From Chryseobacterium camelliae (lineage in GTDB: Bacteria; Bacteroidota; Bacteroidia; Flavobacteriales; Weeksellaceae), in assembly GCF_002770595.1 (NCBI RefSeq), contig NZ_CP022986.1:3596001-3660000 (forward strand): a stretch of 64,000 nucleotides of DNA. Reading direction: 5' to 3'. A model generated the notes under the pieces. The model did not search any database. It worked only from the letters and a program-made list of their open reading frames with translations, and was not told the DNA's origin. The stretch's first letter is position 1, and each line of letters starts with the position of its first letter. Position numbers and translations under genes: made by a program. Of this stretch, positions 18,504 to 45,335 are shown one piece after another.

Positions 18504-18511
18504 TATTTTTG
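18504..18511 (+). promoter_or_regulatory. Probable promoter -7 element of the Wza-Wzc genes
   Basis: TATTTTTG fits TAnnTTTG. It overlaps the in-frame GTG at 18511, so transcription would start downstream of that codon and translation at ATG 18529. Confidence 0.5.
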
Positions 18512-18528
18512 TGAAAAATTTATCATCA

Positions 18529-19338
18529 ATGAATTGGAAAAACTTTATTTGCGGAAGCGCGCTTTTAATGCTATTATTTTCCTGTGGCGCGAGGCAGGAG
18601 ATCAACTATATGAAGGATATTGAAAATATAGTGTTAGACAATTCAATTAAAAATAGCAGATCAACTTTACAGCCGGGTGACCAGCTGATTATTACGGTAA
18701 CGGCAAAAGATTTAGATGTTGTTAAACCTTTTAATCAGATTTATTCTTCGAGCTCAACAATAACACAATTTTCCACTCCTAGCTCCAATAGTCTTCCACA
18801 GCAAATCCCAGTTTCTGGTCCTACTTATAGTGTAGATACAGATTACAATATTGTTTTTCCTCAGATTGGAAAAGTTAACGTTCAAGGTGAAAATATTGAA
18901 AGTCTTAGGATAAAACTTATGGGACTGATAAGTAAGTATGTTAAAGATCCTGTTGTAGATGCTAAATTAATAAATTTCAAGGTTTCTGTAGTAGGGGAAG
19001 TTACTAGGCCAGGAACCTATGTAGTCCCGGATGGTACTACAACAGTATTTGGCGCATTGGGATTAGCAGGTGATCTTACGCCATTCGGAGTAAGAACAAA
19101 TGTTTTGGTCTTAAGGAATGTTGATGGTGTTATAACACAGAATCGTATAGATCTTACCAGTGCACAATTTATCAATTCTCCTTATTATTATTTAAAACAA
19201 AATGATGTCATTTATGTACAGCCAAACTCCAATAGAGAAAAAGCTGCAAGAGTAGACCCGAATACAGGATTATACATTTCCGTAGCGTCAGTTCTTGCCT
19301 CTTTGGTAATCGGGGTCTTGGCATTGGTTAAAAATTAA
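18529..19338 (+). CDS. Wza-like polysaccharide export outer-membrane lipoprotein
   Basis: 269 aa. The signal peptide ends in the lipobox LLFSC with acylated Cys19. A poly-export domain begins at STLQPGDQLIITV, and an SLBB-like domain lies around VSVVGEVTRPGTYVVPDGTT. The C-terminal hydrophobic segment (about 245-265) may form the outer-membrane helix barrel, as in Wza. It would be the outer-membrane exit channel for capsule or exopolysaccharide, partnered by the Wzc kinase that follows 30 bases later. It is the only such gene in the window, so both polysaccharide clusters may depend on it. Confidence 0.88.
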   Translation: MNWKNFICGSALLMLLFSCGARQEINYMKDIENIVLDNSIKNSRSTLQPGDQLIITVTAKDLDVVKPFNQIYSSSSTITQFSTPSSNSLPQQIPVSGPTYSVDTDYNIVFPQIGKVNVQGENIESLRIKLMGLISKYVKDPVVDAKLINFKVSVVGEVTRPGTYVVPDGTTTVFGALGLAGDLTPFGVRTNVLVLRNVDGVITQNRIDLTSAQFINSPYYYLKQNDVIYVQPNSNREKAARVDPNTGLYISVASVLASLVIGVLALVKN

Positions 19339-21870: not shown

Positions 21871-23163
21871 ATGAAAATATACAAAATAGCAGTTATAGGA
21901 CAGGGTTATGTAGGACTACCCTTATCTTTGGAGTTTGCTAAACACTTTCCTGTATTAGGTTTTGACATCAATGAGCAGAGAGTAAATCAATTGAATGAAG
22001 CGATAGATATTACAATGGAGGCAGATATTGAAAAACTAAACAATAGTTTAAAATTATTCAAGGAATCGGATGGGAAAATCGGATATTCTGCAACCAATAG
22101 TTTAGAAACTATTTCTCAAGCTAACATTTTTATTGTAACTGTTCCTACTCCAATTGATAAATACAATGCTCCGGATCTTAATCCATTAATCTCTGCTTCA
22201 AAGATGTTGGGAGAGATTATTAAAAAGGATGATATTGTTATCTACGAATCAACAGTTTTCCCAGGTTGTACAGAAGAAGAATGTGTACCTGTGTTGGAAA
22301 AATATTCAGGATTAAAATATAATCAGGACTTTTTTGTAGGATATTCTCCGGAAAGGATTAATCCGGGAGATAAAATAAATACACTTACAAGTGTAAAAAA
22401 AGTAACATCTGGTTCTACAGAAAAAATTGCTGAAGAAGTAGATAATCTTTATAAAAAAATTATTATCGCAGGAACTCATAAAGCTCCAAGTCTGAAAGTT
22501 GCGGAAGCATCAAAAGCTATTGAAAATGCACAGCGTGATGTAAATATTTCTTTTGTTAATGAATTGGCATTAATTTTTGATAGAGTAGGAATTGATACCA
22601 ACGATGTTCTTGAAGCTGCAGGAACAAAATATAATTTTCTTAAGTATAAACCGGGATTAGTAGGAGGACATTGTATTTCTGTAGATCCATACTATTTAGC
22701 TCATAAGGCCGAGCAACTGGGTTATCATCCTGATGTTATTTTATCAGGCCGCCGTGTAAATGACTCCATAGCAAAATTTGTTGCATCGAAAGTTGTTAAG
22801 CTTCTTATAGCAAAAGGTGGAGTGATAAAAGATTCCGAAGCTCTAATTTTAGGAGTTACTTTTAAAGAAAACTGTCCTGATGTAAGAAATACAAAAGTGA
22901 TAGACATTTATAAAGAGCTTTTAGATTACGGGGTAAAGGTTGATATTTATGATCCTTGGGCAAGCAAAGAAGAAGTAAAACATGAGTATGGAGTTGATAT
23001 TCTTGATGTCCTTGCTGATGATAAAAAATATGATTCTTTGATTATTGCTGTTTCTCATAATGAATTTCTTCAAATGGATCTTAATACTTTGAAGAAAGAA
23101 AATGCAGTTGTTTTTGATACTAAAGCTTGCTTGGACAGGAATTTAGTTGATGGGAGATTATAA
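21871..23163 (+). CDS. UDP-N-acetylhexosamine 6-dehydrogenase (TviB/WbpO/WbpA-type)
   Basis: 430-aa nucleotide-sugar dehydrogenase oxidising C6 of a UDP-HexNAc to the uronic acid with 2 NAD+. NAD motif GQGYVGLP (about 10-17); catalytic Cys268 in VGGHCISVDPYY; C-terminal UDP-binding domain with GVTFKENCPDVRNTK. It sits with WbpE-, WbpD-, WbpB- and WbpI-like genes, so UDP-GlcNAc to UDP-GlcNAcA is the likely reaction. TviB-type enzymes can also take UDP-GalNAc; this cannot be separated by eye. Confidence 0.88.
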   Translation: MKIYKIAVIGQGYVGLPLSLEFAKHFPVLGFDINEQRVNQLNEAIDITMEADIEKLNNSLKLFKESDGKIGYSATNSLETISQANIFIVTVPTPIDKYNAPDLNPLISASKMLGEIIKKDDIVIYESTVFPGCTEEECVPVLEKYSGLKYNQDFFVGYSPERINPGDKINTLTSVKKVTSGSTEKIAEEVDNLYKKIIIAGTHKAPSLKVAEASKAIENAQRDVNISFVNELALIFDRVGIDTNDVLEAAGTKYNFLKYKPGLVGGHCISVDPYYLAHKAEQLGYHPDVILSGRRVNDSIAKFVASKVVKLLIAKGGVIKDSEALILGVTFKENCPDVRNTKVIDIYKELLDYGVKVDIYDPWASKEEVKHEYGVDILDVLADDKKYDSLIIAVSHNEFLQMDLNTLKKENAVVFDTKACLDRNLVDGRL

Positions 23164-24392: not shown

Positions 24393-25523
24393 ATGAAAGT
24401 TGAAATGGTTGATCTTAAAAGCCAATACAATAAAATAAAGGCAGAAGTAAATACAGGTATTCAGGAATGCCTGGATAATACAGCCTTCATTAATGGTCCA
24501 GCAGTAAAAGAATTTCAGAAGGATTTTGAAAAATATCTGAACGTAAAGCATGTAATTCCTTGTGCTAATGGAACAGATGCTTTGCAGATTGCGATGATGG
24601 CTTTAGATCTAAAGCCAGGGGATGAAGTCATTTGTCCCGCTTTCACCTATGTAGCTACTGCTGAAGTAATTGGTCTTTTAGGTTTAAAACCTATTATGGT
24701 AGATGTAGATGAAAATACTTTTAATATAGAATTAAAAGATTTAGAAAAACATCTTACTCCAGATACTAAAGCTATAGTTCCTGTACATTTATATGGGCAA
24801 AGTGCCGATATGGAAAATATTATTGAATTTGCTAAAAAGCATAATCTCTTTGTGATTGAAGATAATGCTCAGGCAATCGGATCAGATTATACCTTTACAG
24901 ATGGAACAGTAAAAAAAACAGGAACCATTGGAGACATTGGGTGCACTTCTTTCTTTCCTTCTAAAAATTTAGGTTGTTACGGTGATGGTGGAGCTTTGAT
25001 GACCAATAATGATGATCTTGCAATCAAAATAAGAATGATTGCCAATCACGGTCAGCAAAAAAAATATCATCATAAAGTTTTGGGTTGTAACTCAAGACTA
25101 GATACTATTCAGGCAGCTGTTTTAAAAGTTAAACTAAAATATCTGGACGAATACTCTACAGCAAGAAATAAGATGGCAACTTACTATGATAAGAATCTTA
25201 AAACTGTTGCTGAAATTCAGGTTCCTGAAAGAGCGCAAAATTCGACTCATGTTTTCCACCAATATACATTAAAGGTAAAAAATGGGAAAAGAGACGAATT
25301 ACAGAAATATCTTGGTGAAAAGAATATTCCAAGTATGGTTTATTATCCTATCCCTTTATATAAGCAGGAAGCATTTCAACAATATGTAGAAGGAAATTTT
25401 AGGCTACCGGTAACTGAAAAACTTTGTTCTGAGGTTATTTCTCTTCCTATTCATACAGAGTTTGACCAAGAAGTAGCAGATTTTATTATTTCAGAAATTA
25501 AAAATTTTTTTTCTAATAACTAA
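24393..25523 (+). CDS. wbpE: DegT/DnrJ/EryC1-family sugar aminotransferase, WbpE-like
   Basis: 376-aa PLP enzyme. PLP lysine K191 is in FFPSKNLGCYGDGGA, with IPCANGTDALQIA near residue 55 and VIEDNAQAIGS near 155. It resembles WbpE/WlbC, which transfers an amino group from glutamate to UDP-3-keto-GlcNAcA. Adjacent WbpD- and WbpB-like genes support that substrate. It is separated from lhgO by 29 bases and from the acetyltransferase by 16, so it is in the same operon. Confidence 0.87.
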   Translation: MKVEMVDLKSQYNKIKAEVNTGIQECLDNTAFINGPAVKEFQKDFEKYLNVKHVIPCANGTDALQIAMMALDLKPGDEVICPAFTYVATAEVIGLLGLKPIMVDVDENTFNIELKDLEKHLTPDTKAIVPVHLYGQSADMENIIEFAKKHNLFVIEDNAQAIGSDYTFTDGTVKKTGTIGDIGCTSFFPSKNLGCYGDGGALMTNNDDLAIKIRMIANHGQQKKYHHKVLGCNSRLDTIQAAVLKVKLKYLDEYSTARNKMATYYDKNLKTVAEIQVPERAQNSTHVFHQYTLKVKNGKRDELQKYLGEKNIPSMVYYPIPLYKQEAFQQYVEGNFRLPVTEKLCSEVISLPIHTEFDQEVADFIISEIKNFFSNN

Positions 25524-26126: not shown

Positions 26127-27137
26127 ATGAGCAATAAGATAAAATTTGCCGTAGTTGGTTGTGGGCATATAGGTAAAAGACATGCTGAAATGATCAGCAG
26201 AAATGAAGAGGCAGAATTAGTAGCAATTATTGATGTTAAACAAAGATCAGCCCTGCAAATTGATCATTTTGATGCACCGTTTTTCAATAGCTTAGATGAT
26301 TTCTTAGCATCAGATATTGAGGTAGATGTTATCAATATTGCTTCTCCTAATGGTTTTCACGCCGAACAGGGTATGAAAGTTTTGAATTCTGGGAGACATT
26401 TGGTTATAGAAAAACCTATGTCTTTGACTAAAAAAGATTCAGAAGCATTAATTTTTAAAGGATTACAAAAGCATAAGCAAGTATTTTGTGTAATGCAAAA
26501 TCGTTATTCTCCTCCATCCGTCTGGTTAAAAGAACTTCTAGAATCGGGTAAGTTGGGTAAGATTTTCATGGTACAGATTAATTGTTATTGGAATAGAGAC
26601 AATCGTTATTACAAACCAGATTCCTGGCACGGTAAAAAAGATCTGGATGGAGGTACATTATTTACTCAATTCTCCCATTTTATTGATTTAATGTATTGGT
26701 ATTTTGGTGACATTACAAATATTCAGGCAAAATTTGCTGATTTCAATCATAGTGAGCTGACAGATTTTGAAGATTCAGGTCTAATATCTTTTGATTTTGT
26801 AAATGGAGGTATGGGTTCTCTTAACTATTCTACTTCTGTGTGGAACACAAATTTAGAAAGTAGTATTACTGTTATTGCAGAAAATGGATCTTTAAAAGTG
26901 GGTGGGCAGTATATGAATGAAGTTGAGTATTGTCACATTAAAGATTATCAGATGCCGCAGTTAGCACCTACAAATCCAGGAAACGACTATGGTGCATATA
27001 AAGGATCTGCAGCAAACCATCATTATATTATAGAAAATGTAGTTGATGTTTTGAAGGGAAGAAGCACAATTACTACAAATGCCTTAGAGGGGCTAAAAGT
27101 AGTTGATATTATTGAACGAATCTACAGTTTGCAATAA
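26127..27137 (+). CDS. wbpB: UDP-GlcNAcA 3-dehydrogenase, WbpB/WlbA-like (Gfo/Idh/MocA)
   Basis: 336 aa. NAD motif VVGCGHIGKRHAE (about 8-20), the conserved EKP near 93-95, QNRYSPP near 120-126 and DGGTLFTQFSHFIDLMYW near 172-189, which is typical of WlbA/WbpB. It oxidises C3 of UDP-GlcNAcA. In characterised members the tightly bound NADH is reoxidised by 2-oxoglutarate, releasing 2-hydroxyglutarate. This links it with lhgO and with the aminotransferase, both within 4 kb. Its stop overlaps the next start by one base. Confidence 0.88.
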   Translation: MSNKIKFAVVGCGHIGKRHAEMISRNEEAELVAIIDVKQRSALQIDHFDAPFFNSLDDFLASDIEVDVINIASPNGFHAEQGMKVLNSGRHLVIEKPMSLTKKDSEALIFKGLQKHKQVFCVMQNRYSPPSVWLKELLESGKLGKIFMVQINCYWNRDNRYYKPDSWHGKKDLDGGTLFTQFSHFIDLMYWYFGDITNIQAKFADFNHSELTDFEDSGLISFDFVNGGMGSLNYSTSVWNTNLESSITVIAENGSLKVGGQYMNEVEYCHIKDYQMPQLAPTNPGNDYGAYKGSAANHHYIIENVVDVLKGRSTITTNALEGLKVVDIIERIYSLQ

Positions 27138-28019: not shown

Positions 28020-29327
28020 ATGAAATTTAAAAAAGAGATAATACTGTCGTATTTTTTTCAGGCTGGAAATGTCATAATTGCATTTCTAACGACTATTATT
28101 CTAACAAAAATGCTTACTCAGTCAGATTGGGGAAATTACTCTTTATTTCAGAATTTAGGGTTAATGACATCTATTATTGGCGGCTTAAGTTTACCTAGTG
28201 CTGTGATTTATTTTGTAGCATCTTCTAAGATTGATACAGTTAAAGTTTTATTTAATTTCTCAGTTTTTCAATTAATTATTTCAGTTGTTACTATACTTTC
28301 TATTTTTTTTATAAATAATTATGTCTCTCATGATTTGCTGAATTTAAAAATTAATAATTATTATTATCTGATTTTTATCTACGTTCTACTTCTCATGGTT
28401 AACAATATTCTTGTTTCCGTTATGAGGGGGGAATTTATGTTTAATCATGTTAATATCATTATTTTTATATCAAATTTATTACTATTATCTTTTTATATTT
28501 ACTATTATTTCTTTGAAAAGTTCACTTCCGTATCTATTAATACTGCTGTTGTACTACTCTTAGTAAATACAGGATTACAGTTTTTTTTAAATTTAAGTTT
28601 TTTGTTTAAAAAACTACAGTTTAAAAAATTAGGGTTCTCTGCACTTAACAGAAATGAGATAAAAGAAATTTTTAAATTCGTTATAACAGTTTATATTGCT
28701 AATGTTGTTCAGATTTTTGTATACAAGATAGATGCTTGGATCTTATATAAATATGTAGGAAGCGGAATAACGGGCATATATACATTAGCAGTAACGGTGT
28801 CTCAGACAACCTGGCTTTTCGCAACAGCTGTTTCTACAATATTATTTTCTCTCATTTCTCAGACAGGAAGTAACGGAATCAATAATACTGTATCATTATA
28901 TCTGAGACTTTCACTTTACGCAACTCTTTTTTTGGGATTTTCACTAACAGTTGCCGTGTATTTTTTATCAGATCTGATATTTGGTGTACAATATAGAGCA
29001 ATTATCTATATAATTCCTATTTTATTAATAGGAATTATTCCATTCTCAATCGTGATCATTTTTGGAAGTTATGTTGCTGGGATAAATAGAAATAAACTAA
29101 ATCTGATAAGTTCTTCAATATCATTTTTCATTGTAATAATTTTAGATCTAATACTCATACCGAAATATCAGTACTGGGGAGCAGCAGCAGCAACAGTAAT
29201 TGCTTATTTATCTAGCTGCCTATACTGCATAATGGTTTTAAAGCTTAAATATAACATACATTTTAATTCTTATATAAATCCTATTTTTTTATATAATGAT
29301 GTAAAAAAAATACTTAAACTAAATTAA
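28020..29327 (+). CDS. Wzx-type lipid-linked oligosaccharide flippase (cluster 1)
   Basis: 435-aa integral membrane protein with 12-14 hydrophobic helices and the MATE/Wzx-like N-terminus (SYFFQAGNVIIAFLTTIILTK). It would flip undecaprenyl-diphosphate-linked repeat units to the periplasm. Very AT-rich even for this cluster. A G6 run at 28426-28431 lies in the coding sequence. Confidence 0.82.
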   Translation: MKFKKEIILSYFFQAGNVIIAFLTTIILTKMLTQSDWGNYSLFQNLGLMTSIIGGLSLPSAVIYFVASSKIDTVKVLFNFSVFQLIISVVTILSIFFINNYVSHDLLNLKINNYYYLIFIYVLLLMVNNILVSVMRGEFMFNHVNIIIFISNLLLLSFYIYYYFFEKFTSVSINTAVVLLLVNTGLQFFLNLSFLFKKLQFKKLGFSALNRNEIKEIFKFVITVYIANVVQIFVYKIDAWILYKYVGSGITGIYTLAVTVSQTTWLFATAVSTILFSLISQTGSNGINNTVSLYLRLSLYATLFLGFSLTVAVYFLSDLIFGVQYRAIIYIIPILLIGIIPFSIVIIFGSYVAGINRNKLNLISSSISFFIVIILDLILIPKYQYWGAAAATVIAYLSSCLYCIMVLKLKYNIHFNSYINPIFLYNDVKKILKLN

Positions 29328-29334: not shown

Positions 29335-30471
29335 ATGATACCTTTCAATAAACCATCCATCGTTGGAAATGAATTAGAATATATTCAAGATGCAGTGAAA
29401 AGAGGAAAAATATCAGGAGATGGATATTACACAAATTTATGTAACGATTTCTTCCGGGAAAAGTTTTCCTTTTCTAATCCTTTACTTACAACATCCTGCA
29501 CAAGTGCTTTAGAAATGACAGCATTGTTAATGGATATCAAAGAAGGAGATGAAATTATTGCACCTTCTTATACCTTCGTTTCTACAGTAAATGCATACAT
29601 CTTGCAAGGGGCTAAAGTTGTTTTTATTGATTCTATGGAAAATGATCCTAATATGGATGTATCACTTATAGAAAAACTGATAACCCCAAAAACAAAAGCA
29701 ATTATTGCTGTTCATTACGCAGGGATTTCTGTAGATATGGATTATCTGGTAGAACTTTGCAAAAAACATAATCTTTATCTGGTAGAAGATTGTGCCCAGG
29801 CTATAGATTCATTTTACAAAGGAAAGAGATTAGGGACTTTTGGACAATTCAGCGCATTTTCCTTTCATGAAACAAAGAATATCATTTGTGGTGAAGGAGG
29901 ACTTCTTGTTGTTAATGATGATAAATTTGCAGATAGGGCTGAAATTATAAGAGAAAAAGGAACTAATAGATCCCTTTTTTTTAGAGGGGAAATTGATAAA
30001 TATGGTTGGGTAGATAAAGGATCATCTTATCTGCCTTCAGACCTTTTAGCAGCATATTTATTTGCACAACTGGAAAATATTGATAAAATTCAATCAAAGA
30101 GAAAATACTTATGGAATCTTTACTATCGGGAACTAAAAGAGTTGTATGACCTTAAATATATACAGTTACCTATAATCCCGGAAGACAATGTAAACAATGC
30201 CCATATGTTTTATATTGTTTTACCTGATCTTCAGACAAGAACTAATCTGATAAAGTATTTGAAGGAAAAAGGTATTTATGCCGTATTTCATTATCAATCT
30301 CTACATCGAAGTGAATATATGGTTAAAAATAATTTTTCAGAAGAAGTCTTAATAAACTCTGACAGGTTTTCAGACTGTTTATTGAGATTGCCTCTATTTT
30401 ATGAACTTACAGAAGAAGATGTGCTATATATAGCAAAAGAAATAAAATTATTTTTTAATGGAAAAATTTAA
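29335..30471 (+). CDS. wecE: dTDP-4-amino-4,6-dideoxygalactose transaminase
   Basis: 378-aa PLP aminotransferase converting dTDP-4-keto-6-deoxyglucose to dTDP-Fuc4N. Strong WecE/RffA signatures: opening IPFNKPSIVGNELEYI, SYTFVSTVNAYILQGAKVVF, PLP lysine K181 in SFHETKN, and REKGTNRSLFFRGEIDKYGW. The substrate would come from RfbA and RfbB at the end of the cluster. It overlaps the next gene, a WecF-like transferase, by 14 bases, as expected for a matched sugar-synthesis/transfer pair. Confidence 0.9.
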   Translation: MIPFNKPSIVGNELEYIQDAVKRGKISGDGYYTNLCNDFFREKFSFSNPLLTTSCTSALEMTALLMDIKEGDEIIAPSYTFVSTVNAYILQGAKVVFIDSMENDPNMDVSLIEKLITPKTKAIIAVHYAGISVDMDYLVELCKKHNLYLVEDCAQAIDSFYKGKRLGTFGQFSAFSFHETKNIICGEGGLLVVNDDKFADRAEIIREKGTNRSLFFRGEIDKYGWVDKGSSYLPSDLLAAYLFAQLENIDKIQSKRKYLWNLYYRELKELYDLKYIQLPIIPEDNVNNAHMFYIVLPDLQTRTNLIKYLKEKGIYAVFHYQSLHRSEYMVKNNFSEEVLINSDRFSDCLLRLPLFYELTEEDVLYIAKEIKLFFNGKI

Positions 30472-31591
30472 TTTAATTTTTTTACCAGATTCTAACTATT
30501 CAGATATTATTATAGATAAATTCGAACAAGTTGCCGAAGGAAAAAATGTGTATATTTGTTTAGCGAATGAAATTAAATACATTAAAAGTAAAAAAGTTAA
30601 TTTTATCCATTCTAGTCTTTCAGGACGATTTCATGGTAATTTGAGTTTTTTAAATAAGGTTTATGGGCGAATCTTTTTTAATCTGAATTCATTAATAACG
30701 ACGAATTTTTATTACAAATACATTCATCAAAAAAGCAACTTTAAGGATGCTAAATTAATAATGATGTTTTGGAGCGGTGAATTGTATAATCATCCTGCAT
30801 ATGAAGAAAGTATTTATGATAACCATTCTTTAAAATATAGAAAAAATAATAAATTATTTTTTTCATCTAAGGCTGTTGACTTTGGTTTAAGGCTTTTAAA
30901 AATGCCTTCCTACAGTGCCTATTATAAGCTGAATCAAAGTATGGATTATTTCTGTTGTTTTTTTCAGTCCGAACATGAAATATTCAATAGAACATTTCAG
31001 TCAAAATCTAAATTCGTTTTATTTACATTTCTTGATTTAGAATTATTGAAATTACAGGAATCAGATTTTGAATCAAAAAAAGAAGACATCTTGATAGGAA
31101 ATTCAGGGTCATTAGAGAATAATCATGCTGAAGCATTTAATTTACTAAAAAAGTTAAATAGTGAAGATTATAGAAAAATAATTGTTCCGCTCAGCTATGG
31201 AGATAATAATTATATCCAAAGTATAATATCATTAGGAAGTCAATATTTTGGTGAAAGAATGAATGCCATGAGTGAGTTTTTAGACAGAAACCAGTATAAT
31301 AATAGCATTTCTAATGTTAAGGTTGCGGTTTTTAACCATTATATTCAACAGGCTGTAGGAAATATTCTATATATGCTATATATAGGCGCAAGAATATATT
31401 TTAATGAAAACAACCCGCTTTATAAAGGGTTTTTAGATAAAGGATTTATTGTAAATTCCTTAAGTGATTTGGAAATTATAAAGCTAAAGCCAATGGATCC
31501 GCTAGATAGAAAGCATAACAAGAATTTAATCCTGGAACTTTTGAATGTTAATGCAAGCTTAAATTATTATAAAACTATAGCTGAATTGTAA
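30458..31591 (+). CDS. WecF-like (GT56) 4-amino-fucose transferase
   Basis: 377 aa. The middle part carries LIGNSGSLENNHAEAF, IIVPLSYGD, FGERM and VAVFNHYIQQAVGNI, matching the pattern of the enterobacterial Fuc4NAc transferase WecF/RffT. WecF adds Fuc4NAc to lipid II of enterobacterial common antigen on the cytoplasmic side of the inner membrane. Translational overlap with wecE supports a Fuc4N-type donor. Sequence similarity is in motifs rather than overall, so exact donor and acceptor are inferred. Confidence 0.75.
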   Translation: MEKFNLIFLPDSNYSDIIIDKFEQVAEGKNVYICLANEIKYIKSKKVNFIHSSLSGRFHGNLSFLNKVYGRIFFNLNSLITTNFYYKYIHQKSNFKDAKLIMMFWSGELYNHPAYEESIYDNHSLKYRKNNKLFFSSKAVDFGLRLLKMPSYSAYYKLNQSMDYFCCFFQSEHEIFNRTFQSKSKFVLFTFLDLELLKLQESDFESKKEDILIGNSGSLENNHAEAFNLLKKLNSEDYRKIIVPLSYGDNNYIQSIISLGSQYFGERMNAMSEFLDRNQYNNSISNVKVAVFNHYIQQAVGNILYMLYIGARIYFNENNPLYKGFLDKGFIVNSLSDLEIIKLKPMDPLDRKHNKNLILELLNVNASLNYYKTIAEL

Positions 31592-31592: not shown

Positions 31593-33347
31593 ATGTGTGG
31601 AATAGTTGGAATTGTAAGTCGAAATAAAAATATTTTAACTTATCAACAAATAAAGATGATGACCGATGCTATAGAGCATAGGGGTCCGGATGGAGATGGG
31701 CAATGGATTGATGAAACTGAGAACGTAGGATTAGGCCATCGAAGACTTTCTATTATTGACTTATCTGATGCAGGCAGTCAGCCGATGCATTATTTAGACC
31801 GATACAGTATTGTTTTTAATGGGGAAATTTACAACTATTTAGAAATTAGGGATTTCCTTAGTACCAAAGGATATGTTTTCAGGTCAGATTCTGATACAGA
31901 AGTCTTAATGGCCAATTTTGATTATAAAAAAGAAAAATGCCTCGAAGATTTTGACGGAATGTTTGCTTTTGCTATTTGGGATAAACAGGAGCAAAAATTA
32001 TTCTGTGCAAGAGATAGATTTGGAGAAAAGCCGTTTTATTATTATCAAAATAATGAAAGTTTTTATTTCGGGTCAGAAATGAAAGCACTTTGGAGAGTTG
32101 ATGTACCAAGAAAAACGAATGGACGAATGCTATTTAATTATTGGCATTTTGGATATATTAATAATTCAAATGATTTATCTGAAACTTTTTATGAAGATAT
32201 ATATCAGCTGGAACCAAGTCATTATATGTTCATAGATTCTAATGGGAAAATAGTAAAGAAACATAAATATTGGGATATAGATCATAGAAACCAATTAGAC
32301 TTTGTAGATTTTAGAGAAGCTAAAGAAACTTTTTTCAGACTTTTTGAAACCTCTATCAGCAGAAGATTACGTTCTGATGTTGCTGTTGGAACGAGTTTGT
32401 CCGGAGGTTTGGACAGTTCCTCAACTGTATGCATGATTAATCATATGAAGGTTAATGGTGTGGAACAAAAAACATTCTCTGCAAGATTTCCTAATTTCGT
32501 TAAAGATGAATCAGTTTATATTGATAAAGTATTAGATACTGTAAATGCCAAAGGCATAAGTTGCTTCCCAACCACAGAAAGCATGCTTAATAATGTAGAT
32601 AAAATTATTCATCATCAGGAAGAACCGTTTGGTACATTAAGTATAGCGGCACAGTATGAGGTAATGAAATTAGCTAGAGAAAATGGTGTAATTGTTTTGC
32701 TGGATGGACAAGGTGCTGATGAGTATCTTTGTGGCTATCACGGGTTAATAGATTCTTTTTTTATTGAATTAAAGAGCAAAGATAAAAAACTCTATAGGGA
32801 GCAGTTAAAAACTTATAAAGAAGTACATTCATCAAACAAGATTAACAATATTTCGAGAAGGCTGAGAAATAATTTCTTAAAAGAAATGTTATCTGATGCG
32901 CAGATTGATAAATTACTGGGAATAAAGTCAGGAATAGATAACTATATTAAAAAGGATGCTAAAAAAGACCTTTACTCAAAATATAAAAACGAACAGTTTG
33001 ATCGAAAATATAGCGCATCATCATTAAATGAAATGCTGTATCATGCAACTTTCAGAGGTGGTTTACAAGAGTTATTGAGATATGCAGATCGAAATTCTAT
33101 GGCACATTCTCTAGAAGTAAGACTTCCTTTTTTATCACACGAATTGGTAGAATTTGTATTTACTTTACCGTCAATCTGTAAGGTTAATAATGGGTTCTCT
33201 AAATTTATTTTAAGAGAAGCAATGAATGAGATTGTACCAAAAGATATTGTTTGGAGAAAAGACAAAATAGGTTATGAACCTCCTAATAAAAATGATGTGA
33301 ATGGTATTACGTTGAAAAAGTATTTAGTAAATAGTTTTAAGATGTAG
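31593..33347 (+). CDS. asnB: Glutamine-hydrolysing asparagine synthetase-family amidotransferase
   Basis: 584 aa. Class II glutamine amidotransferase domain starts at catalytic Cys2 (MCGIVGIVS), with EHRGPDG, RLSIIDLS and NGEIYNY. The AsnB ATP-pyrophosphatase domain has the PP-loop SLSGGLDSS (about 268-276) and LRYADRNSM...EVRLPFL. Inside a capsule cluster such proteins commonly amidate a uronic-acid carboxylate rather than make asparagine; WbpS of P. aeruginosa is a precedent. The uronic acid made by the WbpA-B-D-E-I set is the natural candidate. Confidence 0.88.
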   Translation: MCGIVGIVSRNKNILTYQQIKMMTDAIEHRGPDGDGQWIDETENVGLGHRRLSIIDLSDAGSQPMHYLDRYSIVFNGEIYNYLEIRDFLSTKGYVFRSDSDTEVLMANFDYKKEKCLEDFDGMFAFAIWDKQEQKLFCARDRFGEKPFYYYQNNESFYFGSEMKALWRVDVPRKTNGRMLFNYWHFGYINNSNDLSETFYEDIYQLEPSHYMFIDSNGKIVKKHKYWDIDHRNQLDFVDFREAKETFFRLFETSISRRLRSDVAVGTSLSGGLDSSSTVCMINHMKVNGVEQKTFSARFPNFVKDESVYIDKVLDTVNAKGISCFPTTESMLNNVDKIIHHQEEPFGTLSIAAQYEVMKLARENGVIVLLDGQGADEYLCGYHGLIDSFFIELKSKDKKLYREQLKTYKEVHSSNKINNISRRLRNNFLKEMLSDAQIDKLLGIKSGIDNYIKKDAKKDLYSKYKNEQFDRKYSASSLNEMLYHATFRGGLQELLRYADRNSMAHSLEVRLPFLSHELVEFVFTLPSICKVNNGFSKFILREAMNEIVPKDIVWRKDKIGYEPPNKNDVNGITLKKYLVNSFKM

Positions 33348-33410: not shown

Positions 33411-34469
33411 ATGAAAATTTTAACAATTTTAGGTGCTCGGCCACAATTTATTAAAGCAAGCTCTGTAAGTCGTGAAATAAAAAAATATCTGCAAATAGAG
33501 GAAGTAATAGTACATACCGGACAGCATTATGATACTAATATGTCAGATATTTTCTTTGAACAGATGCATATTCCTAAGCCAAATTACTTCCTTGGAATTG
33601 GTGGAGCGACACACGGGGCGATGACAGGTCAAATGATTGAGCGAATTGAAGAAGTTGTGCTAAAAGAAAATCCTGATATTATTATGGTATATGGAGATAC
33701 AAATTCAACTTTAGCTGGAGCAATAGTTGCATCAAAGCTAAATATTAAACTAGCACATATAGAAGCAGGTTTGAGAAGTTTCAACATGAAGATGCCTGAG
33801 GAAGTAAATAGAATATTAACAGATAGGGTTAGTACTTATCTATTTTGTCCTACTGACAAAGCTGTAGAAAATTTGTATGCGGAAAATTATCAAAATACTG
33901 GCTGTAATATTATAAAAAGTGGCGATGTAATGCTAGATGGAGCCTTATTTTATAAAGAGATAGCAACTCAACCGAATTTTGATATCATGGGTGATTTTGT
34001 TCTCTGCACAATTCACAGAGCAGAAAACACTAATGATATCAATAGACTTAGAAATATTATTGAATCTTTAGACACTATTGCTGAAGAAATAAAAGTAATA
34101 TTGCCTTTACATCCTCGAACTAGCAAAATTATAAAAGAATCTGCAATACCTGTACAAAATATTACAATTACTGAACCAGTTGGATATCTTGAAATGGTTT
34201 GGCTACTAAAGAATTGTACTATCGTAATGACAGATAGCGGTGGTCTTCAGAAAGAGGCTTACTTTTTTAGTAAACCATGTGTTACTTTAAGAGATGAGAC
34301 AGAATGGGAAGAATTAGTCGATGTAGGAGCTAACATCTTAACAGGAACAGATAAAAGTAAGATTCTTGAGGCATATCATCAAGGAAAGAATAAAGAAATA
34401 GCTTTTTCAGAAGAATTATATGGGAGGGGTGATGCTAGCGGTATAATAATAAAAGAACTTTTAAAATGA
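33411..34469 (+). CDS. wbpI: UDP-GlcNAc(3NAc)A 2-epimerase, WbpI-like
   Basis: 352-aa non-hydrolysing 2-epimerase family member. GARPQFIKA (about 8-16), HTGQHYD, IGGATHGAMTGQMIE, GDTNSTLAGA, HIEAGLRSFNMKMPEEVNR and TDSGGLQKEAYF are visible. The GGATHGAMTG segment fits WbpI/WlbD better than WecB. With WbpB, D and E homologues present, the product should be UDP-ManNAc3NAcA. It overlaps the next glycosyltransferase by ATGA. Confidence 0.85.
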   Translation: MKILTILGARPQFIKASSVSREIKKYLQIEEVIVHTGQHYDTNMSDIFFEQMHIPKPNYFLGIGGATHGAMTGQMIERIEEVVLKENPDIIMVYGDTNSTLAGAIVASKLNIKLAHIEAGLRSFNMKMPEEVNRILTDRVSTYLFCPTDKAVENLYAENYQNTGCNIIKSGDVMLDGALFYKEIATQPNFDIMGDFVLCTIHRAENTNDINRLRNIIESLDTIAEEIKVILPLHPRTSKIIKESAIPVQNITITEPVGYLEMVWLLKNCTIVMTDSGGLQKEAYFFSKPCVTLRDETEWEELVDVGANILTGTDKSKILEAYHQGKNKEIAFSEELYGRGDASGIIIKELLK

Positions 34470-35701
34470 AAATATGCTATTTAACTTGGGGAGAAACACC
34501 CCGATCGTATGGTGTTTTTGGATCACAAGTTTTAGGTCAGTTTGTAGCAAATACAAATGAAATAAAGGACGGCAGTTTTTATTTTATCTCAGGTGTACCG
34601 ATTATACATAGTGGACACATTCGAGAAAAAGGTGCCTATAAAGAACAAGTTGAAAAAGTTAAACAAATATTAGGAACAATAAAATTTATAAAAACGCCAA
34701 TTTTTGCATTACAACCTGTTGTATATATGCATAGATTTCTATTTAAGTTTTTATTTTATGGAGCAGAATCATATCTTTTGAAACATTTGAGATCTTTAAA
34801 ACCAAATATTGTTCATTGCAGAGGTTATGGTGCAACATATTTGGCTTTAAAAATTAAAAAGAAATATCATTTTGATTATAAAGTAATATTTGATGCAAGG
34901 GGACTTTTTCCAGAAGAATATGCATTTAAGAATAAATATATCAGACCAAATAAAAATTATTTATTTTTAAAAGAAATGGAAAAACAACTTCTATCAGAAG
35001 CGGATGTTACAATTGTTGTGTCAGATACTATGGCTGAATCATACGAAAAAATTGGAGTTAAATTAATAGAAAAGATTTATTTAAGCGTAGATACAGAAAA
35101 TCTGGCACCTAGTTTAAAGACCTTAAAAGATGAAATAATATATTGTTATCTTGGTGCATTAACTCAAACAACATGGCATACAACAAGTGACCTGTTGAAG
35201 TTGTATACAGAATTAAGAAAAATAACACCAAATTGTAAATTGAAAATTATAACCACATCTTCACATGATGCAATAAAAGAAGTTTTTAAGAAAATTCCTA
35301 GTAATGAAATTATCCTAACTTCAACAAAAAATACCATAGAATTGAAAGCAGAACTGTCTGATGTTAATTTCGGATTGCTACCTTATCGTAGATCAAGCTC
35401 ATGTTTTGAAGATGCGGTTGGTTATAGTATTTTAGGAACTAAGACTGTTGAATTTACTGCAATGGGTATTCCTGTCATAGTAAATGAAGAATGTGGTGGA
35501 GCATCTGTTTTAACCAAAAAATATGATCTCGGTTTTACCTATAATCCCAAGACATTTAAAGAGCTTACTTTTGATAATATTAATAGATATATAAATGATG
35601 GAAAGGAAATGAGACGTAGTGGTATTGCAAAAGATTTATTTGATTACAAAAAAAATGCTGAGAGATATAAAGAATTATATCAAAGATTAGCCGAAGTATA
35701 A
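34466..35701 (+). CDS. Glycosyltransferase family 4 (GT-B) protein
   Basis: 411 aa. Two Rossmann halves. Visible motifs are HCRGYGATYLAL in the N-half, FDARGLFPEE (about 144-153), and VEFTAMGIPVIVN in the C-half at the usual donor-binding site. ATGA overlap with wbpI. It would transfer one of the cluster sugars to the lipid-linked intermediate; donor cannot be named. Confidence 0.75.
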   Translation: MKICYLTWGETPRSYGVFGSQVLGQFVANTNEIKDGSFYFISGVPIIHSGHIREKGAYKEQVEKVKQILGTIKFIKTPIFALQPVVYMHRFLFKFLFYGAESYLLKHLRSLKPNIVHCRGYGATYLALKIKKKYHFDYKVIFDARGLFPEEYAFKNKYIRPNKNYLFLKEMEKQLLSEADVTIVVSDTMAESYEKIGVKLIEKIYLSVDTENLAPSLKTLKDEIIYCYLGALTQTTWHTTSDLLKLYTELRKITPNCKLKIITTSSHDAIKEVFKKIPSNEIILTSTKNTIELKAELSDVNFGLLPYRRSSSCFEDAVGYSILGTKTVEFTAMGIPVIVNEECGGASVLTKKYDLGFTYNPKTFKELTFDNINRYINDGKEMRRSGIAKDLFDYKKNAERYKELYQRLAEV

Positions 35702-36900: not shown

Positions 36901-37809
36901 ATGAGTATACCAATAGTAAAAATTCTTGTTGCAACTTACAATGGGGAGAAATATATTGAAGAACAAATAGCCTCTATTCTAAATCAAAGAGATGTGAATA
37001 TTGATATTGTTGTAAGTGATGATAATAGCAAGGATAGAACTGTAGATATTTTACATGAAAAATATCCTCAAATTTCAATTGTAAAAAATGATCCTGGTAA
37101 TGGTTCTGCAGCAAAAAATTTTCTCAAGATGGTTTCAGAACTTAACTGTAACGAAAATTTTGATTTTGTTGCTTTTTCTGATCAGGATGATATTTGGTTA
37201 GCAGATAAAATGAAAGCCGCAATAGATTCGCTAGTCAGAGGAGACGCAGATCTATATTGTTCGAACCTAACAAAATGGAATTTATCGACCAATACTTTTA
37301 GCAATCTAAAAAAAGACTTTCCACAGAAAAAATTTGATTATTTATTTGAGGGAGGAAGTGCCGGATGCACCTATGTTTTTACAAAAAAGTTTGCACTGGA
37401 ATTAAAAGATTTTGTCAGCAAAATCGAATTTGCTGATTGGCATGGATTTTCTCATGACTGGCTTGTGTATTTTTTTGCTCGATCAAGAAAGTTCAAAGTG
37501 GTAATTGATGGAAATTCATACATTCATTATCGTCTGCATGATAACAATGTACATGGTCACTTAAATAAATTATCTTTTTCTACCTTTAAAGAAAAGTCAA
37601 TACAGGTTTTGAAAGGATATTATCAGAGACACGCTAATTATAATATACAATACCTTCAGCCTGATTCCGAAGATTTTAAAATTTATTCTAAATTTTTAGG
37701 AACCTATTTTCAAAGAAATAGTGTCATTTGGAAATATAATACTTCCTTAATGAGAGATAATAAAAAATTTCTGATTTTTGCAGTACTTAATTTACTAAAG
37801 TTAAAATAG
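36901..37809 (+). CDS. Glycosyltransferase family 2 (GT-A) protein
   Basis: 302 aa. N-terminal VKILVATYNGEKYIEEQI, SDDNSKDRT, SDQDDIW (a DXD-type motif around 98-104) and a later HDNNVHGH. The layout resembles rhamnosyltransferase-like GT2 enzymes of capsule clusters. It lies directly before the PglC-like gene. Confidence 0.78.
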   Translation: MSIPIVKILVATYNGEKYIEEQIASILNQRDVNIDIVVSDDNSKDRTVDILHEKYPQISIVKNDPGNGSAAKNFLKMVSELNCNENFDFVAFSDQDDIWLADKMKAAIDSLVRGDADLYCSNLTKWNLSTNTFSNLKKDFPQKKFDYLFEGGSAGCTYVFTKKFALELKDFVSKIEFADWHGFSHDWLVYFFARSRKFKVVIDGNSYIHYRLHDNNVHGHLNKLSFSTFKEKSIQVLKGYYQRHANYNIQYLQPDSEDFKIYSKFLGTYFQRNSVIWKYNTSLMRDNKKFLIFAVLNLLKLK

Positions 37810-37814: not shown

Positions 37815-38429
37815 ATGTACAAAAAGTTTATAAAAAGATTATTAGATGTAATTTTGTCATTGTTGGGTTTATTGCTTTTAAGTCCTATTTTTATATTAGT
37901 TACAATAGGTTTATATATCTCCAATAATGGTAAACCTTTCTTTTTGCAGGCTCGTCCGGGATTGAATGAAAAAATTTTTAAGATCATTAAATTTAGGACA
38001 ATGAATGATAAAAAAGATGAAAAGGGAAATTTGCTTTCTGATGCTGAAAGGTTAACATCGATCGGAGCTTTTGTTCGAAAAACTTCTTTAGACGAAATTC
38101 CACAATTAATAAACGTGTTGAAAGGTGATATGTCTGTTGTGGGGCCAAGACCTTTGCTGCCGGATTATTTGCCGTTTTATTCGGATTTTCAGAAAAAGAG
38201 ACATCAGGTTAAATCAGGAATTACAGGTTGGGCACAGGTAAATGGGAGAAACGCAATAAGTTGGGAACAGAAATTTGAATATGACGTATGGTATGTTAAT
38301 AATGTGTCTTTTTCCATAGATTTAAAAATATTATTTTTAACAATAAAAAAAATAATATTTCCTGACGGAATTACCGCAGATGGTCACGCCACAATGCCTA
38401 GATTTGACAAACTTGATCAAAAAAAGTAA
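37815..38429 (+). CDS. PglC-like initiating phosphosugar transferase
   Basis: 204-aa monotopic phosphoglycosyltransferase: one N-terminal re-entrant helix (about 8-30), IKFRTM (about 57-62), catalytic DE pair in TSLDEIPQLINVLKGDMS (about 92-109), GPRPLLPDYLPFY and GITGWAQVNGRN. It transfers a sugar-1-phosphate from UDP-sugar to undecaprenyl phosphate, starting the repeat unit. The small size and PLLPDYLP segment fit the PglC/bacillosamine-type subclass. It begins a five-gene block running to the PglE-like aminotransferase at 41035. Confidence 0.85.
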   Translation: MYKKFIKRLLDVILSLLGLLLLSPIFILVTIGLYISNNGKPFFLQARPGLNEKIFKIIKFRTMNDKKDEKGNLLSDAERLTSIGAFVRKTSLDEIPQLINVLKGDMSVVGPRPLLPDYLPFYSDFQKKRHQVKSGITGWAQVNGRNAISWEQKFEYDVWYVNNVSFSIDLKILFLTIKKIIFPDGITADGHATMPRFDKLDQKK

Positions 38430-38442
38430 TATAATTATCAAC

Positions 38443-39492: not shown

Positions 39493-39494
39493 TA

Positions 39495-42271: not shown

Positions 42272-43351
42272 ATGAAAAATATTATTATAACCGGAGGTGC
42301 GGGATTTATTGGATCCCATGTCGTAAGAGAGTTTGTAAAGAGGAATCCTGATATCAAAATCATTAATCTTGATGCCCTTACTTATGCGGGCAATCTGGAG
42401 AACCTGAAGGATATCGAAAATGAACCTAATTATGTTTTTGAAAAGGCGGATATTACAAAGCCTGAAGAATTAAGAGCTGTATTTGAAAAATATAATCCTG
42501 ACGCAGTGGTTCACCTGGCTGCAGAAAGCCATGTCGACCGGAGCATAACGGATCCCATGGCATTTATCAATACCAATGTAAACGGAACAGCAAACCTTCT
42601 GAATCTCTGCAAAGAGTTCTGGACGCTGAACCCCGATCATATCCACGGAAGATTTCCTGATGAACAAAGAGACAATCTTTTTTATCACATTTCCACGGAC
42701 GAAGTTTACGGAAGCCTGGGAGAAACCGGTTTCTTTTTGGAAACGACGGCATATGACCCACAATCTCCCTATTCTGCGTCAAAAGCAGCCTCGGATCATT
42801 TGGTAAGAGCCTATGGCAATACCTATGGAATGCCTTTTATCGTTTCCAATTGTTCCAATAATTACGGGCCCAACCACTTTCCTGAAAAGCTGATCCCGCT
42901 CTGCATCTCCAATATCATCAATGAAAGGCCCTTACCTATTTATGGTGACGGCAAATATACGAGAGACTGGCTGTTCGTCATTGATCATGCCAGAGCGATC
43001 CACCAGATTTTTAACGACGCCAAAACAGGGGAGACCTATAATATCGGTGGCTTTAATGAATGGCAGAATATTGATCTTGTTAAAGAACTTATTAAACAGA
43101 TGGATGCAAAGCTTAACAGGCCGGAAGGCTATTCGGAAAAGCTGATCACTTTTGTAAAGGACAGGCCGGGACACGATAAGCGCTATGCAATCGATGCCAA
43201 CAAACTGAATAAAGACCTGGGATGGAAGCCGTCTGTAACTTTTGAACAGGGACTGGGAAAAACCATCGACTGGTATCTGGAAAACAAAGAGTGGCTGGAG
43301 CATGTAACGAGCGGTGACTACCAGAAATATTATGAAAACCAATACCATTAA
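42272..43351 (+). CDS. rfbB: dTDP-glucose 4,6-dehydratase
   Basis: 359-aa extended SDR. NAD motif GGAGFIGSH (7-15), catalytic region STDEVYG (about 134-140), YSASK (about 167-171), SNNYGP and [11 protein letters not shown]. It makes dTDP-4-keto-6-deoxyglucose from dTDP-glucose, the branch point for WecE (Fuc4N) and RfbC (rhamnose). Base composition is clearly less AT-rich than the gene block to its left. It follows an 88-base gap and precedes rfbA by 14 bases. Confidence 0.95.
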
Positions 43352-43365: not shown

Positions 43366-44229
43366 ATGAAAGGTATAATTTTAGCCGGAGGTTCCGGAAC
43401 CCGACTTTACCCTCTTACCATAGCCGTAAGTAAGCAGTTGATGCCTGTCTATGATAAGCCGATGATCTACTATCCGCTTTCCACTTTATTGCTGGCAGGC
43501 ATCAGGGATATTCTGATTATTACGACACCGCACGATCAGGATGGCTTTGTAAAGCTGCTGGGTGACGGCTCACAGATCGGGTGCAACATAGAATATGTCG
43601 TTCAGCCCAGTCCGGACGGATTGGCACAGGCCTTTATCCTCGGAGAACAGTTTATCGGGAATGACGCTGCGGCTCTTGTCCTGGGTGACAATATCTTTTA
43701 TGGGTCAGAGATGGGCACACTACTTAAAAACAAGACTAATCCTGATGGAGGTGTTGTTTTTGCCTATCATGTTTCAGATCCTGAGCGCTATGGGGTAGTT
43801 GAGTTTGATGCAGATCTTAAGGCGGTTTCCATCGAAGAGAAGCCTGCTACTCCAAAATCAAACTATGCGGTACCCGGGCTCTATTTCTACGATAATGAAG
43901 TAGTGAACATTGCCAAAAACATTCAGCCTTCAGCCAGAGGCGAGCTGGAAATTACCGATGTTAACAACGTATATCTTAATAAGGGTAAACTTGAGGTAGG
44001 TGTCCTGGACAGAGGAACTGCATGGCTGGATACAGGGACCTTTGACTCTTTAAACGATGCTTCGGAATTTGTACGGGTCATTGAGAAAAGGCAGGGATTC
44101 AAGATCGGATGCATCGAGGAAATTGCTTTCAGGAATAAATTTATCAACGAAGAAAAGCTGCTTGAAACGGCCAAGAAATATGGCAAAAGCGGGTATGGGG
44201 AATACCTGAAATATTTAATAATGAAATAG
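43366..44229 (+). CDS. rfbA: Glucose-1-phosphate thymidylyltransferase
   Basis: 287 aa, normal family length. Nucleotidyltransferase signature [12 protein letters not shown] (6-17), [28 protein letters not shown] and [10 protein letters not shown]. It makes dTDP-glucose from dTTP and glucose-1-phosphate for RfbB. It is the last gene of cluster 1; three terminator-like hairpins follow. Confidence 0.96.
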
Positions 44230-45281: not shown

Positions 45282-45335
45282 CAAAGTTTAACTGAAACGG
45301 GATATAATCTTAATTTTCAAAATATAATCCAACAA

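What the first reader, a model, noticed from the sequence alone, without database searches (positions are those of the whole stretch)
29335..31591. WecE-WecF pair suggests an enterobacterial-common-antigen-like repeat unit
wecE overlaps a WecF-like GT56 gene by 14 bases, and RfbA/RfbB supply the dTDP-sugar. Together with a ManNAc3NAcA route this parallels the HexNAc-ManNAcA-Fuc4NAc order of ECA, here in a flavobacterial Wzx/Wzy cluster with a bacillosamine-type first sugar. The acyl group on Fuc4N may be formyl, because a formyltransferase rather than a WecD-like acetyltransferase is adjacent.
Basis: partly seen in the sequence, partly recalled or inferred. Interest (0 to 1): 0.5.

Follow-up and report, generated by a model that had tools for sequence, protein, structure and literature searches.

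The report
Formylated relative of enterobacterial common antigen
A flavobacterial capsule gene cluster probably makes a sugar chain that resembles part of the enterobacterial common antigen but carries a formyl instead of an acetyl group on one rare sugar, and similar three-gene sets occur in other bacterial phyla.

Summary
wecE (29335-30471) passes the curated dTDP-Fuc4N aminotransferase models (545 bits, cut-off 375) and overlaps a GT56 (WecF-like) gene by 14 bases. Genes of the dTDP-Fuc4N and UDP-ManNAc3NAcA routes are present.

The formyl guess now has comparative support. Of 80 fetched loci with relatives of the window formyltransferase (FT, 27137-28009), 61 have a full-length wecE in the fetched stretch and 41 within 150 bp; none of 7 other recognised DegT aminotransferases lies that close. 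In 14 loci FT, wecE and GT56 lie together; a Cellulophaga contig reads epimerase-wecC-rfbB-rfbA-FT-wecE-GT56, with FT where E. coli has wecD.

Two corrections. GT56 is not specific to Fuc4NAc: 13 of 44 GT56 loci lack wecE and have an aminotransferase whose best model is DesI (13 of 13, below its cut-off), suggesting Qui4NAc. And this is not ECA: WecG and WzyE were not found in the genome and four sugars per repeat are likely. Most likely dTDP-Fuc4NFo is made and added by GT56; a ManNAc-uronate acceptor is plausible, not shown. New variant of a known kind.

The parts
29335..30471 (+). WecE: dTDP-4-keto-6-deoxyglucose aminotransferase making dTDP-Fuc4N
   Evidence: PRK11706 545 bits (cut-off 375), TIGR02379 486 (434.85); 54% to E. 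coli WecE; 4piw
30458..31591 (+). GT56 (WecF-like) glycosyltransferase, predicted to add Fuc4NFo
   Evidence: PF07429 49.5 bits (cut-off 25); predicted model pLDDT 78.3, best solved match BshA 3mbo_D Z 21.1, rmsd 3.7 over 326 residues
27137..28009 (+). FT: ArnA/Fmt-type N-formyltransferase, predicted dTDP-Fuc4N N-formyltransferase
   Evidence: PF00551 and PF02911; model pLDDT 93.9; ArnA 5j63 Z 29.0; linkage to wecE
28020..29327 (+). Wzx flippase
   Evidence: PF01943; 12 TM-like segments
42272..43351 (+). RfbB, dTDP-glucose 4,6-dehydratase
   Evidence: TIGR01181 452 bits (cut-off 365)
43366..44229 (+). RfbA, glucose-1-phosphate thymidylyltransferase
   Evidence: TIGR01207 478 bits (cut-off 361)
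21871..23163 (+). TviB/WbpA-type UDP-GlcNAc 6-dehydrogenase
   Evidence: TIGR03026 388 bits (cut-off 190); PRK15182 TviB 519 (below cut-off 592)
24393..25523 (+). WbpE-type 3-aminotransferase
   Evidence: solved WbpE 3nyu 335 bits, second to 7b0d 342 bits
25540..26112 (+). WbpD/WlbB-type N-acetyltransferase
   Evidence: 3mqg 222 bits (LPS biosynthesis acetyltransferase)
26127..27137 (+). WbpB/WlbA-type 3-dehydrogenase
   Evidence: GFO/IDH/MocA; 3q2i 187 bits (its identity as WlbA is recalled)
33411..34469 (+). WbpI-type UDP-sugar 2-epimerase (WecB family)
   Evidence: TIGR00236 327 bits (cut-off 210)
31593..33347 (+). AsnB-type amidotransferase, possibly uronamide-forming
   Evidence: TIGR01536 458 bits (cut-off 267)
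34466..35701 (+). GT4 glycosyltransferase
   Evidence: PF13439/PF00534
35703..36860 (+). Wzy candidate (no family match)
   Evidence: no Pfam match; 10 TM-like segments
36901..37809 (+). GT2 glycosyltransferase
   Evidence: PF00535
37815..38429 (+). PglC-type initiating phosphoglycosyltransferase
   Evidence: PF02397 215 bits
41035..42183 (+). LegC/PglE-type aminotransferase (first sugar)
   Evidence: TIGR04181 400 bits (below cut-off 420); 4ztc 337 bits
16338..18305 (+). PglF/PseB-type sugar-nucleotide dehydratase, upstream of the cluster
   Evidence: PF02719 394 bits; TIGR03589 189 bits (below cut-off 408)
18511..19338 (+). Wza-type export protein
   Evidence: PF02563
19369..21744 (+). Wzc-type protein
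   Evidence: PF13807 and PF13614

Best explanation
The cluster is a Wzx/Wzy polysaccharide locus containing a formyl variant of the ECA Fuc4NAc module. RfbA, RfbB and WecE make dTDP-Fuc4N (family assignment shown). FT formylates its 4-amino group with formyl-tetrahydrofolate to give dTDP-Fuc4NFo (inferred from linkage to wecE and from the ArnA-like fold; not assayed). The GT56 protein then transfers Fuc4NFo to a lipid-linked acceptor (inferred). The acceptor is most likely a ManNAc3NAcA residue or its amide, made by TviB, WbpB, WbpE, WbpD, WbpI and possibly AsnB (inferred, weaker), on a bacillosamine-type first sugar laid down by the PglC-type enzyme. One further sugar is likely, so the repeat would be ECA-like in its Fuc4N-acyl/ManNAc-uronate part but not ECA. 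My separate estimates: formylation of Fuc4N 0.8, transfer by GT56 0.75, ManNAc3NAcA-type acceptor 0.45; the confidence below is for the core claim (FT makes dTDP-Fuc4NFo and GT56 transfers it), not for the acceptor.
For: WecE passes two curated models. FT linkage: 61 of 80 FT loci have a full-length wecE in the fetched stretch (41 within 150 bp, 39 of these on FT's strand); 7 other DegT aminotransferase ORFs (5 WbpE-like, 2 LegC-like) were recognised, none within 150 bp. The 4 other genomes of the family with FT (of 320) all have wecE directly beside it; 3 of the 4 have no GT56 in the stretch, none gives a wbpB match, and WbpD matches there are weak (25-30 bits); L063 has one WbpE-like aminotransferase about 4 kb away. 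FT, wecE and GT56 lie together in 14 of the 16 FT loci that carry GT56: 9 Bacteroidota, 3 Bacillota, 1 Pseudomonadota, 1 Kapabacteria MAG. L127 (Cellulophaga) reads epimerase-wecC-rfbB-rfbA-FT-wecE-GT56; L090 (Aquimarina) the same with two unassigned ORFs between wecC and rfbB. In L182 a different formyltransferase (PF00551 plus N_formyltrans_C, with an Asn in the motif; only 39 bits to the window FT) takes the same place beside a WecE that passes its cut-offs and a GT56. Acceptor: the window GT56 groups with L079 and L109 (97/93); of the 44 other GT56 rows these two alone give a wbpB match (66, 56 bits), a wbpD match over 100 bits (350, 300) and an asnB match over 500 bits (613, 586). L079 has DesI/VioB-type donor genes instead of wecE, so donor genes differ while presumed acceptor genes stay. 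In FT+wecE loci, 2-epimerase or 6-dehydrogenase genes occur in 6 of 16 with GT56 and 2 of 46 without (Fisher p 0.0026).
Against: All 81 FT sequences (window plus 80) have V (72), I (7) or T (2) where ArnA has the Asn of its catalytic set, so activity is not assured. 19 of 80 FT loci show no full-length wecE; some are short contigs, others are full stretches. In the window wzx separates FT from wecE. The acceptor association weakens to 6 of 15 against 2 of 31 (p 0.0097) for stretches of 15 kb or more and 5 of 14 against 1 of 18 (p 0.064) for 20 kb or more. L109 shows no wbpE, wbpI or tviB in its 20.9 kb stretch, and the wbpB matches of L079 and L109 are weak. A later relative in the window's GT56 clade (L183, clade 96/94) has a WbpI-like gene but no wbpB, wbpD or asnB match in about 60 kb around it. 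The shared block may be inherited together without a functional link, and the three-member clade is a single event.
Confidence: 0.6

Rival explanations
1. The formyltransferase acts on another amino sugar of the cluster, such as the LegC-type 4-amino sugar or the 3-amino uronate, and Fuc4N is acetylated or left free.
For: FT directly follows wbpB in the window (they share base 27137) and is separated from wecE by wzx. The cluster also has a LegC-type aminotransferase with no partner acetyltransferase recognised beside it.
Against: Across 80 FT loci no recognised WbpE- or LegC-type aminotransferase lies within 150 bp, against 41 for WecE. A WbpD-type acetyltransferase is present for the 3-amino position.
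Confidence: 0.15
2. The GT56 protein adds Fuc4NFo to a residue other than the ManNAc3NAcA-type sugar, for instance to the first sugar; the resemblance to ECA order is only apparent.
For: 27 of 44 GT56 loci show no 2-epimerase or 6-dehydrogenase in the fetched stretch. Window GT4 and GT2 have no match among eight tested ORFs of L079 and L109. L183 lacks wbpB, wbpD and asnB nearby.
Against: The GT56 clade with L079 and L109 shares wbpB, wbpD and asnB; FT+wecE loci with GT56 are enriched in ManNAc-route genes, though not significantly for full-length stretches.
Confidence: 0.35
3. The FT family has lost formyl transfer and has another role, since its catalytic Asn is replaced.
For: Position 89 is V, I or T in 81 of 81 sequences.
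Against: His91 and Asp127 are invariant in 81 of 81; the model matches ArnA with Z 29.0, rmsd 2.4 over 278 residues including the C-terminal domain; a formyltransferase of another subfamily, with the Asn, takes the same place in L182.
Confidence: 0.1

Closest known systems
Enterobacterial common antigen (ECA) cluster of E. coli
   Same: WecE; RfbA/RfbB homologs; a GT56 transferase; a 2-epimerase and a ManNAc-type uronate route; Wzx/Wzy assembly. Relatives L127 and (with two extra ORFs) L090 keep much of the ECA gene order
   Different: Formyltransferase where WecD would be; no WecG or WzyE match in the genome; TviB/WbpA-type dehydrogenase plus WbpB, WbpD and WbpE types; AsnB; PglC-type initiator; probably four sugars
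P. aeruginosa/Bordetella ManNAc3NAcA pathway (WbpA, B, E, D, I)
   Same: All five enzyme types are present
   Different: Set in a flavobacterial cluster with Fuc4N genes and an L-2-hydroxyglutarate-oxidase gene between tviB and wbpE
ArnA formyltransferase domain (UDP-L-Ara4N 4-N-formylation)
   Same: Best-matching solved sugar formyltransferase, 5j63 Z 29.0, rmsd 2.4 over 278 residues (Fmt 4iqf is tied at Z 29.1); acts on a 4-amino sugar nucleotide
   Different: Asn of the catalytic set replaced by V/I/T; linked to wecE; no dehydrogenase domain
VioF-type dTDP-Qui4N formyltransferases
   Same: Presumed dTDP-4-amino-4,6-dideoxyhexose substrate
   Different: More distant fold match (VioF 4yfy Z 18.0, rmsd 3.0 over 220 residues); substrate is the C4 epimer

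Membership tests
ECA biosynthesis system | WecE making dTDP-Fuc4N | tested here: met
   PRK11706 and TIGR02379 over cut-off
ECA biosynthesis system | WecF equivalog (GT56) | tested here: not met
   Pfam GT56 cut-off passed but best NCBIfam WecF model 121 bits against 457
ECA biosynthesis system | WecG (GT26) ManNAcA transferase | tested here: not met
   No PF03808 match in the genome; E. coli control positive
ECA biosynthesis system | WzyE polymerase | tested here: not met
   No PF06899 match in the genome; E. coli control positive
ECA biosynthesis system | WecD acetyltransferase acting on dTDP-Fuc4N | tested here: inconclusive
   None recognised among the cluster ORFs scanned; FT present instead; the genome was not searched for WecD
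ECA biosynthesis system | Trisaccharide GlcNAc-ManNAcA-Fuc4NAc | not testable with these tools
   Needs chemical analysis
CAZy GT56 / Pfam PF07429 | Match over the curated Pfam cut-off | tested here: met
   49.5 bits, cut-off 25, residues 190-328 only
Sugar N-formyltransferases (ArnA/VioF type) | Formyl_trans_N domain with the conserved His and Asp | tested here: met
   PF00551 52.5 bits; His91, Asp127 invariant in 81 of 81
Sugar N-formyltransferases (ArnA/VioF type) | Asn of the Asn-His-Asp set (role recalled, from no call) | tested here: not met
   V/I/T in 81 of 81 sequences; ArnA has N at that place
ManNAc3NAcA pathway | WbpA/B/E/D/I enzyme types | tested here: met
   By sequence similarity only:

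The most novel reading that the evidence does not exclude
A separate ArnA-type formyltransferase subfamily, without the usual catalytic Asn, is dedicated to dTDP-Fuc4N and together with WecE and GT56 forms a travelling cassette that puts Fuc4NFo on ManNAc-type uronates in Bacteroidota, Bacillota and Pseudomonadota: a formylated, ECA-like glycan family outside the Enterobacterales. GT56 would be a general 4-acylamido-4,6-dideoxyhexosyltransferase family that accepts either C4 epimer, its subclades following the acceptor more than the donor.
Probability: 0.4. Interest if true: 0.65.

Novelty: new variant of a known kind. Interest (0 to 1): 0.5.

Why it matters
A 2020 survey of sugar pathways (PMC7725333, passages seen) states that Fuc4NAc is found only in Gammaproteobacteria. 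Loci with FT within 150 bp of wecE here are 33 Bacteroidota, 4 Bacillota, 1 Verrucomicrobiota, 1 Pseudomonadota, 1 Delongiibacteriota and 1 without a phylum label, which suggests that a formyl form of this sugar is much more widespread; a survey that looks for the acetylated sugar might miss it (inference). If shown, it would give a clear enzyme to test (a dTDP-Fuc4N formyltransferase without the catalytic Asn), a rule for reading GT56 genes in capsule clusters, and a testable link between ECA and capsules outside the Enterobacterales.

Tried and rejected
Label error corrected: the non-WecE aminotransferases were labelled 'Fdt' (dTDP-Fuc3N). Searches (one protein, best solved match 2po3, a 4-dehydrase; all 13; DesI is the best model in 13 of 13, at 204-272 bits against a cut-off of 650) point to a dTDP-Qui4N type instead.

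Arg idea, mostly rejected: the Arg of the GT56 'RQQ' motif is lost in the window, L079 and L109, the loci with strong AsnB, and also in L081, which suggested that Arg binds the acceptor carboxylate. The one further relative found in that clade, L183, also lacks Arg but has no asnB match on the three stretches fetched from its contig; its genome's AsnB homologs lie on another contig. Other loci with weaker AsnB matches (L051, L052, L054, L185-L187) keep Arg. Left as a hint only.

Rows dropped or not fetched: of 38 fetched regions, seven (L061, L070, L074, L075, L077, L078, L080) were not counted as GT56 loci, because the GT56 match was under 50 bits or none was recognised; three of them (L075, L077, L078) have wecE in the stretch. 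L126 (1860 aa ORF) was counted as a GT56 locus but left out of the tree. Of the 21 other genomes matched, 20 were fetched (G505 was not); of the 14 other genomes matched, 3 had been fetched before, 8 were fetched and 3 weak ones (G347, G836, G953) were not. Of 530 FT relatives only the best 80 were kept by the tool. Counts are not corrected for relatedness: 51 of the 80 FT loci are Bacteroidota. By the same token L123 and L112, counted as FT loci without wecE, lie on the contigs of L185 and L186, which carry wecE and GT56 some tens of kb away.

Literature on formylated Fuc4N: searches returned no paper (asked for any one of six terms such as Fuc4NFo), one (PMC7725333), two (only PMC7725333 looked at, by passages). 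One search listed one paper on wbtJ (listing only); two searches gave listings only, apart from PMC7439462. Papers seen: PMC7725333, PMC7439462 and PMC8651671 by passages. The library holds only open-licence PMC papers, so absence from print is not claimed.

GT4 and GT2 of the window show no phmmer match (E up to 10) to eight ORFs of L079/L109, so transferase order could not be inferred from them.
Full report
What is there. In the window a + strand run from 18511 to 44229 encodes Wza- and Wzc-type proteins and a Wzx/Wzy-type polysaccharide cluster; the Wzy is a candidate by its membrane segments only. wecE is secure by two curated models and by 54% identity to E. coli WecE. The GT56 assignment is secure at the Pfam level but distant from WecF proper (121 bits against a cut-off of 457). 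A model built from 16 sequences (mean pLDDT 78.3) matches GT-B glycosyltransferases; its best solved match is BshA 3mbo_D (Z 21.1, rmsd 3.7 over 326 residues).

Sugar routes. RfbA, RfbB and WecE give dTDP-Fuc4N. A TviB/WbpA-type dehydrogenase, WbpB, WbpE and WbpD types and a WecB-family epimerase (WbpI) give UDP-ManNAc3NAcA; the WbpE, WbpD and WbpB types were checked against solved structures. An AsnB-type amidotransferase follows GT56 and may convert the uronate to an amide (inference). The first sugar is probably of bacillosamine type (PglC-type initiator, LegC/PglE-type aminotransferase, and a PglF/PseB-type dehydratase upstream), but its acyl step is not clear. One initiator plus GT56, GT4 and GT2 suggests four sugars per repeat.

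Which acyl group. In the window alone this is weak, since FT follows wbpB and is split from wecE by wzx. Other genomes help. In the 320 genomes of the window's family FT occurs in 5 including the window's; the four others all have wecE directly beside it, and only one of them has GT56. A scan of genome contigs found 530 relatives, of which 80 were kept. 61 of 80 carry a full-length wecE in the fetched stretch and 41 within 150 bp, 39 of them on the same strand; 7 other DegT aminotransferase ORFs and one weak WecE-like one were recognised, none of the 7 within 150 bp. Of the 40 loci of 20 kb or more, 32 have wecE and 23 have it within 150 bp. In L182 a different formyltransferase (PF00551 with the N_formyltrans_C domain, best solved matches ArnA 75 and VioF 69 bits, with Asn in the motif) takes the same place beside wecE and GT56; L182 also carries a DesI/VioB-type pair several kb away. 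FT therefore most likely makes dTDP-Fuc4NFo. Its model (pLDDT 93.9) is closest to Fmt and ArnA (Fmt 4iqf Z 29.1; ArnA 5j63 Z 29.0, rmsd 2.4 over 278 residues; VioF 4yfy Z 18.0), ArnA being a 4-amino-sugar formyltransferase. A caution: in 81 of 81 FT sequences the residue aligned with ArnA's Asn is V, I or T, while His91 and Asp127 are invariant. The catalytic role of that Asn is recalled, not from a call.

The trio and ECA. FT, wecE and GT56 lie together in 14 of the 16 FT loci that have GT56; the other two are L122 (FT 5.6 kb from wecE) and L147 (GT56 3.5 kb from FT). The 14 are 9 Bacteroidota, 3 Bacillota, 1 Pseudomonadota and one Kapabacteria MAG without a phylum label. L127 (Cellulophaga) reads epimerase, wecC, rfbB, rfbA, FT, wecE, GT56; L090 (Aquimarina) has the same order with two unassigned ORFs between wecC and rfbB; L117 (Bizionia) has the same genes with rfbBA further upstream. 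In E. coli the order is wecC, rffG, wecD, wecE, wzxE, wecF, wzyE, wecG (the table omits wecB and rffH, whose places are recalled). FT stands where E. coli has wecD. L109 (a Bacteroidetes MAG) reads wbpD, wbpB, wzx, FT, wecE, GT56, asnB, close to the window's own order, though wbpE, wbpI and tviB are not in its stretch.

GT56 is broader than WecF. Of 44 GT56 rows gathered up to (43 distinct loci), 28 have wecE, 13 have another DegT aminotransferase and 3 neither. In all 13 the best model is DesI, a dTDP-Qui4N type, though every one is below its cut-off; a nearby acetyltransferase matches the NeuD/PglB/VioB model best in 5 of 5 tested, 4 of them over the cut-off. So the donor is probably a dTDP-4-acylamido-4,6-dideoxyhexose of either C4 configuration. 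In the tree of 45 GT56 proteins the WecE label needs 5 changes (shuffled mean 13.3, none of 500 as low): clustered, but switching.

Acceptor. The window GT56 groups with L079 and L109 (97/93). Of the 44 other GT56 rows these two alone have a wbpB match (66 and 56 bits, both weak), wbpD over 100 bits (350, 300) and asnB over 500 bits (613, 586), although L079 has DesI/VioB-type donor genes; L079's genome has a TviB-type gene about 16 kb from GT56. Among FT+wecE loci, epimerase or dehydrogenase genes of the ManNAc route occur in 6 of 16 with GT56 and 2 of 46 without (p 0.0026), falling to 6 of 15 against 2 of 31 (p 0.0097) and 5 of 14 against 1 of 18 (p 0.064) for stretches of at least 15 and 20 kb. 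Against this, L183, which joined the clade later (96/94), has a WbpI-like gene but no match to wbpB, wbpD or asnB in about 60 kb, and L181, with wbpD 300 and wbpB 419 bits on a contig that begins at GT56, lies outside the well-supported clade. A ManNAc-type uronate acceptor, as in ECA, is the best guess but not shown.

Not ECA. The genome has no match to the WecG and WzyE Pfam models, which find both in E. coli. The system works like the Fuc4NAc arm of ECA but is not a member of that system.

Literature. A 2020 survey says Fuc4NAc is found only in Gammaproteobacteria (PMC7725333, passages). My searches for formylated Fuc4N in the held library returned no specific paper. The ECA review PMC7439462 (passages) was used for the ECA pathway.

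Verdict. A sound first reading, partly right as stated. The pairing and the formyl idea stand, the latter now with comparative support; the strict sugar order stays open. I rate it a new variant of a known kind.

Noticed in passing
23173-24363: An L-2-hydroxyglutarate oxidase (LhgO, 541 bits, cut-off 299) sits between tviB and wbpE. P. aeruginosa WbpB is reported to reduce 2-oxoglutarate to D-2-hydroxyglutarate (PMC8651671, passages), so this may recycle 2-hydroxyglutarate made by WbpB, but the enantiomer does not match.
   Followed up: partly
L082 4081, L083 18276: LhgO homologs (442, 448 bits) also lie in two GT56/WecE loci that show no wbpB match, so the oxidase may have another role in such clusters.
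   Followed up: no
38380-41038: PglC overlaps a PRK12767-type ATP-grasp gene by 50 bases, followed by an NAD-dependent epimerase-like gene and a metallophosphoesterase before the LegC-type aminotransferase: possibly an unusual decoration of the first sugar.
   Followed up: no
44589-56780: A second polysaccharide cluster with its own PglC-type and WcaJ-type transferases, Wzc, Wzx, EpsG-type polymerase, several GTs and RfbC follows directly.
   Followed up: no
L070, L074, L075, L126: GT56-like stretches inside ORFs of 1275-1860 aa, suggesting fusions with other domains.
   Followed up: no
L084 6953-8098: An ATP-grasp-type gene lies directly beside wecE and GT56, hinting at an aminoacyl instead of acetyl or formyl group on Fuc4N.
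   Followed up: no
window GT56 residues 106 and 296; L079, L109, L183: A GT56 clade has Ser for Gly after a conserved Trp and lacks the Arg of the RQQ motif.
   Followed up: partly
59916-61460: A response regulator receiver domain fused to a PglZ domain on the - strand.
   Followed up: no
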